From positions 1 through 20,214 of IMG/VR virus record IMGVR_UViG_3300042007_000080: 20,214 nucleotides of DNA; one strand, 5' to 3'. The translations under genes were made by a program, and so were the position numbers. The stretch's first letter is position 1. The number at the start of each line of letters is the position of its first letter. The stretch is from a virus. The notes beneath the pieces were generated by a model. It saw only the letters and a program-made list of their open reading frames with translations. It did not search any database and was not told the origin of the DNA. Shown in pieces: positions 2,517-14,034 of this stretch.

Positions 2517-2935
2517 CCCCCGACCCGGCGGCCTGGATCGACCACATGGTCCTCGTGGAGTCCCTGCGATTCGCCGTGCCCATGTGGGTCGACGAGCTGC
2601 GCCGCCTGCCTGCCGACATTCGGGAACAGCGCCGCTACGCCTGGGCGAGCGAGTCCGCGCAGCACGTCGCCGAGCGGGGCGACGCGCTCCAGTTCGGCGG
2701 TAAACGAGGCAGCGCCGCCGCCGTCTTCAACAGTCTGGCCCGCGGGCTCGCGGCAGCCGCCTACCAGTCGGGCGGCATCACGTTCGCCGGCGTCCACTGG
2801 TGCATGAATCACACCGAGTGCGAGGAGGCCGAGCGGGAGGCCGCGGCCCGGCCGTCGCTGCTCGACCGGCCCGACCCGCCCCCGGCACCCCCGGTCCGGC
2901 CGATCGTCGACGTGCACCTCCCCGAGGTGCTCTGA
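2513..2935 (+). CDS. Conserved actinophage-type hypothetical protein
   Basis: 140 residues, ATG 2513 overlapping the previous TGA. The first 100 residues look like a compact helical/mixed domain with a distinctive segment, ASESAQHVAERGDALQFGG, then an Ala-rich helix, then GGITFAGVHWC. The last 30 residues are Pro-rich and probably disordered. I recognise the general look of a protein found in actinobacterial prophage early operons, but no assigned function. There are no membrane segments or obvious catalytic motifs. Its stop is coupled to the next gene by TGATG. Confidence 0.75.
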   Translation: MTPDPAAWIDHMVLVESLRFAVPMWVDELRRLPADIREQRRYAWASESAQHVAERGDALQFGGKRGSAAAVFNSLARGLAAAAYQSGGITFAGVHWCMNHTECEEAEREAAARPSLLDRPDPPPAPPVRPIVDVHLPEVL

Positions 2936-3657
2936 TGCTCGACGCGCCGCTGGCCCACGGGTACACCCTCGCCGATGTCCACCGGCTGGCCCGCAAGTCC
3001 GCCGGCTCGAACCGCACCATGGCCGCCGACCACCGGGATCTGCTGGACACGGCTTGGTCAGCGATCGCCGAAGCCGTCTACGCCTCCTCAGAGCCGCCGA
3101 CCGAGCATGACCTACTCGCCGTGGGGAAGGGCGCCATCTGGGACATCGTCAAGGACCACCGGAAGACCTACGGCTACCGGGATCGGGAATGGGATGCCGG
3201 CTACGCCAGCGCACCCCGGTTTGTGACGTACTGGCTCGACCTCACCGGCGTCACACCAAGCCCCGAACAGGGCATCGTGGAGCGCCTCACCCTGCCCCGC
3301 CTACTCGATGCCCTCAAACCGCACGAGCGGGCCGCGGTCGCCGCGCTGGCCGCCCATGACGGGGACCGTATTGCCGCCGCAGCCGCGCTCGGCATCACCG
3401 AGAACACGTTCAACCGCCGGATCTGGCTGGCCCGCCGCACCTGCCTCGCCCTGTGGTTGGAGGGCGAAACCCCGGCGCGTACCCCGCTGCGCCGGCTGGA
3501 CCGACGCAACCACCGCGGCGAGGTGGCCCCGCACGGGACGCTGGCGGCCGGCCGCCGACACCAAAGCCGACGTGAGCCGCTGTGTGAGCCGTGCCGTGCG
3601 GCGATGTCCGCGTACGACCGGGCCCGGAGAGGCCCACGAGGAAAGGCAGCAGCATGA
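2935..3657 (+). CDS. Sigma-70-like/HTH transcription regulator with C-terminal Cys-pair tail
   Basis: 240 residues. An N-terminal helical region (about 9-100) resembles a divergent sigma region 2. It is followed by SPEQ..VERLTLPRLLDALKPHERAAVAAL and the helix-turn-helix GDRIAAAAALGITENTFNRRIWLARR (about 142-167), the usual shape of sigma region 4, where an ALGIT...VxxRLxRAR-like pattern contacts the -35 element. A basic C-terminal extension carries HGTLAAGRRHQSRREPLCEPCRAA, matching the actinobacterial phage motif (C/H)GTxxGYxxHxRRxExxCxxC. Known ECF sigma factors would act with host RNA polymerase to redirect transcription, here perhaps to middle or late genes. The sigma call is inference from the region-4-like part; a non-sigma HTH regulator is the alternative. 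Confidence 0.55.
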   Translation: MLDAPLAHGYTLADVHRLARKSAGSNRTMAADHRDLLDTAWSAIAEAVYASSEPPTEHDLLAVGKGAIWDIVKDHRKTYGYRDREWDAGYASAPRFVTYWLDLTGVTPSPEQGIVERLTLPRLLDALKPHERAAVAALAAHDGDRIAAAAALGITENTFNRRIWLARRTCLALWLEGETPARTPLRRLDRRNHRGEVAPHGTLAAGRRHQSRREPLCEPCRAAMSAYDRARRGPRGKAAA

Positions 3658-11747: not shown

Positions 11748-12490
11748 CCGACACCAGCGCTCTGCGCGCCGCCGCCGCGCAGGCCCGCGCCGCTGCCGCA
11801 GGTGGCCGGACGATGGGCATCCCGTGCGATGAGCCGCGCCGCTCCGACATCAAGTTCGCCTCGGAGATGCGCGCGGAGAAGGTCGACCGGGACGGCCTCA
11901 CCTGGTATCGGGTGGAGGGCTACGCGTCGATGTATGAGCGCGGCTACGAAATGTGGGACGTGTTCGGCCCCTACACGGAGGTCGTGACCCGGGGTGCCGC
12001 CGAACGGACCCTCACCACCAACCCTGATGTGGTGTACCGGTTCAACCATGCGGGCATGCCGATGGCCCGCACCACGAACGGCCGTCTGGAGTTGTGGGAG
12101 GACTCCACCGGGCTCGGTGACCGGGCTTGGCTGAACCCGAAACGCGCCGACGTCCAGGAGCTGATCCACGCCATCGAAGACCGCGACGTGACGGAGCAGT
12201 CGTTCATGTTCCGCATCACCGAAGGCAACTGGTCGGAAGACTTCAGCGAGTTCCGGATCGCCGAGTTCGACCTGGACCGCGGGGACGTCGGGCCGGTCAC
12301 CTACGGCGCGAACCCCAACACCACGGTGGCGTTGCGGTCCGGTGAGATCCTCGCCGCCATTCCCCGACTGCCCGCGCTGGCCGCCCGCGAGGCGTACCAG
12401 CTGTTGGCCCAGCGCGGTGACCTTACCCCCGAAGACTCTGCGCCGACGGGGCGCAGTATCGCCCTCGTCCGGCACCTGCTGGATCTGTAG
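11744..12490 (+). CDS. HK97-family prohead protease
   Basis: 248 residues from GTG 11744, with GGGAGG just upstream and overlapping the portal stop. Family S78 features: GYASMYERGYEMWD...FGPYTEVVTRGA, catalytic His102 in YRFNHAGMPMAR, catalytic Ser153 in VTEQSFMFR, and the terminal beta strand DVGPVTYGANPNTT. The 51-residue His-Ser spacing matches the family. It is packaged in the prohead and cleaves the N-terminal scaffold domain of the capsid protein. The N-terminal 35 residues are Ala-rich and may be a self-cleaved propeptide. Confidence 0.9.
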   Translation: MTDTSALRAAAAQARAAAAGGRTMGIPCDEPRRSDIKFASEMRAEKVDRDGLTWYRVEGYASMYERGYEMWDVFGPYTEVVTRGAAERTLTTNPDVVYRFNHAGMPMARTTNGRLELWEDSTGLGDRAWLNPKRADVQELIHAIEDRDVTEQSFMFRITEGNWSEDFSEFRIAEFDLDRGDVGPVTYGANPNTTVALRSGEILAAIPRLPALAAREAYQLLAQRGDLTPEDSAPTGRSIALVRHLLDL

Positions 12491-12510
12491 GGCACACACC
12501 TCCTCCACGT

Positions 12511-12565
12511 CCCGGGCCCAGATGGCGGCCGGGCGGCTACCGGTGCGCTGGCCAGATGGCGCCAG
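12511..12565 (+). promoter_or_regulatory. Twin stem-loops with identical CAGATGGC loops
   Basis: In the 128-nt gap before the capsid gene, stem-loop 1 pairs 12511-12518 with 12527-12533 (7 bp, one bulged G at 12514) around loop CAGATGGC (12519-12526). Stem-loop 2 pairs CTGGC (12548-12552) with GCCAG (12561-12565) around the same loop (12553-12560). The stems differ outside the closing C-G pair, so the shared 10-mer CCAGATGGCG is loop plus closing pair. This suggests a paired RNA-binding or ribosome-control element for capsid expression. Confidence 0.5.
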
Positions 12566-12618
12566 ACATCCGCAGGCACGGAGCAATCCACTATCCACAC
12601 CTGCCGAAAGAGGCTGTC

Positions 12619-14034
12619 ATGCCAACCATCACCGAGACGATCTCGGCAATCGAAGTCGAGCTCGAGGCCGCCGAGCGGGTCCGTGACCGGTCGATCGCCG
12701 AGGCGAAACTGATCCTCGACACCGCAACCCAGGAGGGGCGGGCGAGCCTGTCCCCCGACGAGGACGCCCAGGTCAACGCCCTGTTTGAGCGGCGCGACCA
12801 GGCCAAGAAGGACATCCAGGGCATCAAGAAGAAGCTGGATTCGGCGCAGAAGGTCCGCGCCGAGGAAATCGAGAACGAGAAGGCGTACGCGGAGCGGCAG
12901 GCCACCGGTGCCGCCCGGCCGGCCTACGACCACGTTGGCCGGGTTGGGCGGGAGGAGCGCACCTACCGGCCCGACAGCGACCGCAAGGGTGGCCAGTTCA
13001 TTCGGGACGTCTCCCGACAGTTCCTCTACCGGGACCTCGAGGCGGAGCACCGGCTCGCACGGCACATGCAGGAAGAGCGGGTCGAACGGTCCCAGTACCT
13101 GCAGCGGGCCGTCGGCACCGGCGCGTTCACCGGTCTGGTGGTGCCGCAGTACCTGACGGACATGTACGCCCCGGCGGTCGCCGCGCTCAGGCCGTTCGCC
13201 GACATCTGCACCAAGCACGAACTCCCGCCGGACGGCATGACCGTCAACATCTCCCGCATCACCACCGCCACCAGCGTGGCGCTGCAGTCGTCGGAGAACG
13301 CATCCGTGTCGGAGACCAACATCGACGACACGCTGCTGACGGAGAACGTGCACACCGCCGCCGGCCAGCAAACCATCTCCCGGCAGGCCATCGACCGCGG
13401 TACCGGAATCGAAGAGGTCGTGATGTCGGACCTGTTCCGCCGGTACGCGACCACCCTGGACTCGACGCTGATCAACCAGGCCACCACCGGCCTGTCGGCG
13501 GTCGCCCAGGCCGTCACCTACACCGACGCGGACCCGACCGCAGCCGAGCTGTGGCCGAAGCTGCTCAACGCCAACGCCAACGTGGAGGCGGCACTGCTCA
13601 ACCAGGCCACCCCCACCCACGCGATCATGCACTCGCGGCGCTGGTACTGGCTGCAGTCCCAGGTCGGCAACTCGTGGCCGTTCATGTCGCAGCCCGGGAT
13701 CGCCACCCAGGCCGGCGGCACGAACTTCGCCACCGGCTACGACATGGGCGCCCGAGGCGTACTGCCCAACGGCAACCGGGTCATCGTCGACAACAACATC
13801 CCCACGAACCTCGGTGCTGGCACCAACGAGGACGAAATCTTCGTCGTGCCGGCGGACGAATGCCACCTGTGGGAGGACCCGCAAGCGCCGGTGTTCATCC
13901 GCGCAGAACAGCCGCACGCGGCATCCCTCGGTGTGCTGCTGGTGCTGTACGGCTACTTCGCCTACAGCTTCCGCCGGTACACCAACGGCATGAGCAAGAT
14001 CAGCGGCACCGGCCTGGTGACGCCCACCTTCTGA
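12619..14034 (+). CDS. Major capsid protein (HK97 fold, with N-terminal scaffold domain)
   Basis: 471 residues from ATG 12619, preceded by AGAGG at 12609-12613; an in-frame ATG at 12556 lies in a hairpin loop without a ribosome-binding site. About the first 115 residues are a charged coiled-coil delta domain (EVELEAAERVRDRSIAEAK ... QVNALFERRDQAKKDIQGIKKKL), acting as built-in scaffold and presumably removed by the protease. The mature part (about 150-471) has the HK97-type succession TGLVVPQYLTDMYAPAVAALRPFADICTKHELP, TTATSVALQSSENASVSE, and the C-terminal FIRAEQPHAASLGVLLVLYGYFAYSFRRY. The long gap before it and the hairpin after it fit separate, high-level expression. Confidence 0.93.
   Translation: MPTITETISAIEVELEAAERVRDRSIAEAKLILDTATQEGRASLSPDEDAQVNALFERRDQAKKDIQGIKKKLDSAQKVRAEEIENEKAYAERQATGAARPAYDHVGRVGREERTYRPDSDRKGGQFIRDVSRQFLYRDLEAEHRLARHMQEERVERSQYLQRAVGTGAFTGLVVPQYLTDMYAPAVAALRPFADICTKHELPPDGMTVNISRITTATSVALQSSENASVSETNIDDTLLTENVHTAAGQQTISRQAIDRGTGIEEVVMSDLFRRYATTLDSTLINQATTGLSAVAQAVTYTDADPTAAELWPKLLNANANVEAALLNQATPTHAIMHSRRWYWLQSQVGNSWPFMSQPGIATQAGGTNFATGYDMGARGVLPNGNRVIVDNNIPTNLGAGTNEDEIFVVPADECHLWEDPQAPVFIRAEQPHAASLGVLLVLYGYFAYSFRRYTNGMSKISGTGLVTPTF

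What the first reader, a model, noticed from the sequence alone, without database searches (positions are those of the whole stretch)
12511..12565. Two stem-loops with different stems but an identical 8-nt loop ahead of the capsid gene
The 10-mer CCAGATGGCG occurs twice, 34 nt apart, and each time CAGATGGC is exactly the loop of a local hairpin. Stem 1 is CCCGG/GCC-type with one bulge; stem 2 is CTGGC/GCCAG. Keeping the loop while changing the stem is what a protein-binding or loop-loop-interacting RNA element looks like. Its place in the only long gap of the head operon, before the most highly made protein, suggests control of capsid translation or an RNA processing site. The regulatory role is inference.
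Basis: partly seen in the sequence, partly recalled or inferred. Interest (0 to 1): 0.6.

Follow-up and report, generated by a model that had tools for sequence, protein, structure and literature searches.

The report
Matched-loop hairpins before capsid gene
Just ahead of the capsid (virus shell) gene of this bacterial virus, the messenger RNA carries a pair of small hairpins with the same loop but different stems, and the same arrangement recurs at the same place in most of its relatives, so it is very probably an undescribed RNA switch for shell-protein production.

Summary
Both hairpins exist (loops CAGATGGC at 12519-12526 and 12553-12560). They lie in the 128-nt gap between the S78 protease and the capsid gene, whose real start is ATG 12619. 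In about 90 related phages and prophages of Streptomyces, Amycolatopsis, Frankia and other actinobacteria, the same gap holds 1-3 such hairpins. Stems covary strongly, the loop start CAG is nearly fixed, and loops within one phage match each other far better than loops of different phages. Pattern-only scans of IMG/VR, Streptomyces genomes and long viral records find the tandem essentially only in front of this capsid family, on the sense strand. Mycobacteriophages with 28-33% identical capsids have the same plan with another loop (TGGCACT, twice). In Streptomyces-type leaders, loop plus 5' arm is complementary to the sequence just before the Shine-Dalgarno, predicting a translational switch; this pairing is not evident in the window. 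Rfam and the papers searched do not describe it. I conclude: a new cis-acting RNA leader of the capsid gene, most likely a translational control element read by one loop-binding factor. Structure and locus specificity are well supported; control of translation is inferred.

The parts
12491..12618 (+). capsid-gene leader: 128-nt non-coding gap between protease stop and capsid start
   Evidence: same gap holds the element in relatives
12511..12533 (+). hairpin 1: CCC(G)GGCC - CAGATGGC - GGCCGGG, 7 bp with one bulged G
   Evidence: second best match in the window to covariance model R2, built without the window, 14.4 bits, E about 0.1
12519..12526 (+). loop 1, CAGATGGC
   Evidence: loop class CAGATSNC of relatives
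12548..12565 (+). hairpin 2: CTGGC - CAGATGGC - GCCAG
   Evidence: best match in the window to model R2, 21.0 bits, E about 0.001
12553..12560 (+). loop 2, CAGATGGC
12572..12604 (+). possible SD-proximal helix GCAGG 12572-12576 / CCTGC 12600-12604, next to the Shine-Dalgarno
   Evidence: present in the predicted fold; other leaders also have a local helix here (L022 type, inspection output); not tested by covariation
12606..12613 (+). Shine-Dalgarno GAAAGAGG of the capsid gene
   Evidence: sequence
12619..14034 (+). major capsid protein, the gene the leader belongs to
   Evidence: PHROG 2263 major head protein, E 2e-56; relatives 61-72% identical
11813..12490 (+). prohead protease upstream of the leader (start codon approximate)
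   Evidence: PF04586, E 5e-20; phrog_80

Best explanation
It is a cis-acting RNA leader of the capsid mRNA: an array of two (one to three) hairpins whose loops are read by one and the same trans factor, with the stems serving only as scaffolds. It most likely sets how often ribosomes start on the capsid gene. In Streptomyces-type relatives the mechanism can be drawn: the 5' arm plus loop of one hairpin is also complementary to the stretch just upstream of and into the Shine-Dalgarno (for example CCGG-C-AGATCG with CGATCT-A-CCGG-AAGG), so a closed hairpin leaves the ribosome site free and an opened hairpin covers it. A factor that grips the loops would decide between the two. In the window the same hairpin array is present but the pre-SD complement is not, so there the link to the ribosome site must be by a bound factor or by the local helix next to the SD. 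Shown: hairpins, covariation, concerted loops, locus and strand specificity, SD complementarity in one large lineage. Inferred: the effect on translation, its direction, and the factor; the capsid protein or another head protein is my first guess because the element always travels with this capsid gene.
For: Stem covariation over 75 distinct hairpins: 83% of cells paired against 64% shuffled, 73 double changes against 25, score 0.436 against 0.125, at most 0.115 when slid. The three innermost pairs were pre-selected as paired; the three outer pairs were not and also covary. Loops within a phage: 28 distinct loop pairs, mean identity 0.83 against 0.54 +- 0.04 permuted, 11 identical against 1.2; within-phage identity exceeds that between phages with about 90% identical capsids. 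Locus specificity: 29 of 31 tandem hits in IMG/VR lie between protease and this capsid; 28 single-motif hits in about 760 kb of viral records, 27 at the gap and all on the sense strand. Distant mycobacteriophages share the plan with loop TGGCACT and compensated stems. SD complementarity: only at -32..-14 from the start, 4.29 against 3.43 +- 0.14 nt; 23 of 25 Streptomyces-type leaders predicted to pair loop and pre-SD.
Against: No experiment. Predicted folding of the window alone does not favour the two hairpins. Outside the Streptomyces-type lineage the predicted SD pairing is hardly more frequent than in shuffles (6 of 41 against 9%), and the window lacks it. Wobble pairs do not decide between RNA and DNA. 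Loop class does not track capsid better than protease, so no ligand is singled out.
Confidence: 0.5

Rival explanations
1. Autogenous protein operator without an RNA switch: free capsid (or scaffold-domain or protease) protein binds the twin loops and blocks translation when unassembled subunits accumulate.
For: Concerted, lineage-specific loops on free stems are what a protein-read operator looks like; the element is bound to this capsid family; needs no SD complement, so it covers the window too.
Against: No ligand shown; loop class correlates no better with capsid than with protease (partial r 0.19 and 0.27); the hairpins sit 50-105 nt upstream of the start, not on it.
Confidence: 0.25
2. 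RNA-only switch or timer: hairpins form first during transcription and leave the SD open, later rearranging so that a hairpin's 5' half covers the SD; no protein involved.
For: Position-specific loop/pre-SD complementarity and ensemble predictions with one hairpin open and the other closed in 23 of 25 Streptomyces-type leaders.
Against: Not detectable in the window and not above chance outside that lineage, while matched loops are general; loop and pre-SD element are about 70 nt apart, so co-inheritance inflates the swap test.
Confidence: 0.12
3. mRNA processing or stability element that lets the capsid message outlive the protease and portal message in one operon.
For: Place at the head of the most needed product of the operon; hairpins stabilise 5' ends (general knowledge).
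Against: A barrier would need stems, not matched loop sequences; loops are the conserved part.
Confidence: 0.08
4. DNA-level protein site (operator, recombination or packaging site) made of short inverted repeats.
For: Short palindromic arms around a conserved core; wobble counts do not exclude DNA.
Against: Double-stranded DNA sites would conserve the arms or the whole box; here arms change freely but stay complementary, and copies lie on the sense strand only. No promoter or terminator was found in the window gap.
Confidence: 0.03
5. Chance repeats in a GC-rich gap.
For: Window fold energy is not unusual (z +1.2).
Against: Everything comparative.
Confidence: 0.02

Closest known systems
Translational operator hairpins of phages (MS2 coat operator, T4 RegA/gp43 operators; from general knowledge)
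   Same: Small hairpins near a ribosome site, loop carrying the specificity, stem free to vary.
   Different: Two or three copies with matched loops, 50-105 nt upstream of the start, in front of the capsid gene of a tailed dsDNA phage; no protein ligand known.
Loop/pre-SD pseudoknot control, as in IncI-type plasmid repZ (from general knowledge)
   Same: Hairpin loop complementary to a stretch just upstream of the Shine-Dalgarno; seen here in Streptomyces-type leaders.
   Different: Several loops for one complement, stem arm included, lineage-specific, absent in the window; direction of the effect unknown; no antisense RNA seen.
Autogenous control of P22 scaffolding protein synthesis (from general knowledge)
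   Same: Post-transcriptional feedback on a head-assembly gene as a plausible purpose.
   Different: Other gene, other phage type, no hairpin array of this kind recalled.
Cluster O 17-bp dyad repeats in mycobacteriophages (PMC4351075)
   Same: Short inverted repeats in an actinophage.
   Different: Those have fixed arms, a variable 3-bp centre and more than 30 copies spread over the genome; here arms vary, the loop is fixed and copies sit at one locus.
Cluster J (Omegavirus) mycobacteriophages (PMC3706429)
   Same: Homologous capsid gene with two hairpins of a shared loop (TGGCACT) in the same gap.
   Different: Loop sequence differs; a term search of that paper found no mention of hairpins or stem-loops.

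Membership tests
Any described Rfam 15 family | match at the family's gathering score | tested here: not met
   no match in the window or in 12 relatives; permissive scan of the gap gives only chance matches with E above 2
Conserved structured RNA element (general) | compensatory changes that keep the stems | tested here: met
Conserved structured RNA element (general) | predicted fold more stable than shuffles | tested here: not met
   z +1.2; uninformative at this G+C content
Translational operator bound by a phage protein | hairpin with conserved loop upstream of the start codon | tested here: met
Translational operator bound by a phage protein | protein ligand and repression | not testable with these tools
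   needs binding assays and reporters; correlation with capsid or protease is not decisive
repZ-type loop/pre-SD pseudoknot or SD switch | loop complementary to the stretch just upstream of the SD | tested here: inconclusive
   met in Streptomyces-type leaders; at most 4 nt in the window
Intrinsic terminator or attenuator | G+C-rich hairpin followed by a T run | tested here: not met
   none in 12300-12800
Dispersed phage repeats (stoperators, cluster O repeats) | many copies across the genome | tested here: not met
   copies confined to the capsid gap
boxB or put type antitermination RNA | hairpins near the start of a transcript with boxA or polymerase contacts | not tested
   transcript starts are unknown; position deep inside the head operon argues against it

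The most novel reading that the evidence does not exclude
The leaders form a fast-recoding address system: each phage lineage carries its own loop word, written two or three times before its capsid gene and read by a co-evolving phage protein (possibly the capsid or its scaffold domain), which flips a Shine-Dalgarno switch. That would be an autogenous RNA operator of a tailed-phage capsid gene, kept across phages whose capsids share only about 30% identity.
Probability: 0.25. Interest if true: 0.82.

Novelty: new variant of a known kind. Interest (0 to 1): 0.63.

Why it matters
How tailed phages make hundreds of capsid subunits for every portal or protease from one operon is poorly understood outside a few models. 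A conserved, structured leader confined to the capsid gene of a wide group of actinophages and prophages points to a specific RNA-level control step, gives a ready reporter experiment, and would add an RNA family to the databases. The matched but recoded loops offer a natural series for finding the factor that reads them.

Tried and rejected
Folding energy of the window: uninformative. Universal loop/anti-loop pairing: real in Streptomyces-type leaders, not general, not in the window. Ligand by co-variation of loop class with capsid, its N-terminal part, or protease: not discriminating. Wobble asymmetry to tell RNA from DNA: too few cells. Terminator or promoter in the gap: none. Rfam, including a permissive scan of the gap: none. 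Third copy of the 10-mer at 3132-3141: on the + strand it is a complement of the loop inside an early ORF, judged chance. Tandem hits L123 and L124 in IMG/VR, and the CAGAC-type hits L279-L282, L286, L287 in Streptomyces genomes: not next to a capsid of this family, judged chance or coding repeats. Type B tandem pattern in 395 whole genomes of the class of G022: none found. Literature: eight searches, no description found; the library holds open-licence papers only.

Full report
What is there. The window is a 20.2-kb IMG/VR virus fragment with a standard head operon: small and large terminase, portal (PF04860), S78 prohead protease (PF04586), capsid (PHROG 2263), connectors, tail. Between the protease stop (12490) and the capsid start (ATG 12619, preceded by GAAAGAGG) lie 128 non-coding bases. 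They contain two hairpins with the identical 8-nt loop CAGATGGC on different stems. The 10-mer is expected 0.06 times in the window by chance. The window alone would not convince: its folding energy is ordinary, and in a longer context the two hairpins compete with a joint fold.

Relatives. A scan with the capsid protein gave 80 IMG/VR loci at 61-72% identity and prophages in Streptomyces, Amycolatopsis, Frankia, Spongiactinospora and others; two further scans added diversity. Hairpins with related 7-9-nt loops (CAGATCGC, CAGATGAC, CAGATGGC, CAGACGCC, CAGTCAGA, CACTCAGA, CAGACCGAA, CAGAGCAGA, CAGAACAGA, AGCTCACA and others) recur in the same gap. The proximal one usually lies 57-80 nt before the start codon, the next one 33-43 nt upstream of it. 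A test that presupposes no loop sequence finds two hairpins with an identical loop in 25 of 120 capsid gaps, against 2 of 2400 shuffles and 3 of 2007 control windows.

Covariation. Of 75 distinct 20-mers centred on an 8-nt loop, with the three closing pairs required, 83% of all stem cells pair and 73 cells carry double changes (25 expected). The covariation score is 0.436 against 0.125 for shuffles, and collapses when the partner is slid by one base. The outer three pairs were not part of the selection and still vary as G-C, C-G, A-U and U-A. C, A and G at the start of the loop are invariant in this set, but that follows from the CAG search pattern; outside it CAC, TAG and other starts occur. 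A covariance model built without the window rows still ranks hairpins 2 and 1 first and second in the window, at 21.0 and 14.4 bits, the latter only just above background.

Locus specificity. Scanning all of IMG/VR for tandem hairpins by pattern alone gave 31 stretches, 29 of them between protease and capsid of this family. In 20 long viral records the 14-mer CGGCAGAYNNCCCG occurs 28 times, 27 at the capsid gap, all in capsid sense. In 393 Streptomyces genomes the tandem pattern gave 10 hits; the four that contain CAGAT loops are capsid leaders, and the six with CAGAC loops only are not next to a capsid.

Beyond the family. Mycobacteriophages with capsids only 28-33% identical have the same plan with another word. 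In Optimus, Courthouse, Baka, Ariel, Porcelain, LittleE, Bipper, Typha and WXIN the loop TGGCACT occurs twice, on stems such as CCCCC/GGGGG, ACCCTC/GAGGGT, CCCCCTTT/AAAGGGGG, GCCC/GGGC and GTCG/CGAC. The TGGCACT tandem pattern finds three IMG/VR contigs, all next to a capsid homologue. A sister clade (L093-L120, capsids mostly 55-64% identical) has a different, strongly conserved structured leader in the same gap.

Concerted loops. The two loops of one phage agree far better than loops drawn from different phages: over 28 distinct loop pairs the mean identity is 0.83 against 0.54 +- 0.04, and 11 pairs are identical against 1.2 expected. Within-phage agreement exceeds that between phages whose capsids are about 90% identical. 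This is what a common reader of all loops in one phage would produce.

Link to the ribosome site. In Streptomyces-type leaders the sequence just before the Shine-Dalgarno complements the loop and the 5' arm: CATCTG-TACGGAGGG with CAGATG, CGATCT-A-CCGGAAGG with CCGG-C-AGATCG. Elsewhere: GACTGCCGG with CCGGCAGTC in L033, CCGGTCTGAC with GTCAGACCGG in L011, TGACT-A-CCGG with CGG-C-AGTCA in L164. The excess is confined to -32..-14 from the start (4.29 against 3.43 +- 0.14 nt, no swap of 1000 reaching it); other windows are unremarkable, and the excess remains, weaker, without the Streptomyces type (3.29 against 2.67, p 0.001). Ensemble folding predicts a hairpin opened onto the pre-SD element in 23 of 25 Streptomyces-type leaders, often with the other hairpin kept closed, but in the rest only about as often as in shuffles. 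Because loop and pre-SD element are about 70 nt apart, shared ancestry inflates the swap statistic; I count a handful of independent solutions, not dozens. The window has at most a 4-nt match and is not explained by this pairing.

Judgement. That this is a conserved RNA structure tied to the capsid gene I hold at about 0.95. That it acts on translation, with loops read by one factor and in one lineage a switch over the Shine-Dalgarno, is the best account but untested (about 0.5). No earlier description was found in Rfam 15 or in the open-licence papers searched.

Noticed in passing
L093-L119, about 130 nt before the capsid start (e.g. L101:2857-2985): Sister-clade prophages (Streptomyces, Nonomuraea, Thermomonospora and others) carry a different, strongly conserved structured leader in the protease-capsid gap (TCCCGCC..GGCGGGA, TGCCCTGCGCTC..GCGCACGAG, CCAYCCG..CGGRTGG with double changes, ACCGGGGCGYC); the representatives scanned have no Rfam match.
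   Followed up: partly
L149:1429-1474 (phage Optimus) and the same place in L152: The annotated capsid start of Optimus (GTG, no SD) is probably too far upstream: GAAAGGA followed by ATGGAG at L149:1474 fits homology and the hairpin spacing; AGTGCC at the annotated start complements the loop GGCACT.
   Followed up: partly
window 12556: An ATG in loop 2 is in frame with the capsid gene and makes the automatic ORF 21 codons too long.
   Followed up: yes
window 3132-3141: Third copy of CCAGATGGCG on the minus strand; the + strand reads CGCCATCTGG, a perfect complement of the loop, inside ORF 2800-3657. Probably chance.
   Followed up: no
window 2800-3657: ORF with weak matches to an HTH_8 domain (Pfam) and a WhiB-like regulator (PHROG 12112); looks like a phage transcription regulator.
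   Followed up: no
about -235 from the capsid start in many Streptomyces-type loci (e.g. L012, L042, L045): A further hairpin GCGCCG-CAGAYGC-CGGCGC with a similar loop lies inside the 3' end of the protease coding sequence; whether coding or RNA constraint is unknown.
   Followed up: no
L022, L142, L147 just before the capsid SD: Instead of an anti-loop these leaders have a local hairpin AGCAAGC..GCTTGCT directly before ACCGAAGG, so the stretch before the SD may be paired in another way.
   Followed up: no
L271:1192-3433 (phage LittleE): The capsid gene of LittleE is annotated as split by a putative group I intron with an HNH endonuclease gene on the other strand; the leader hairpins lie upstream of it.
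   Followed up: no
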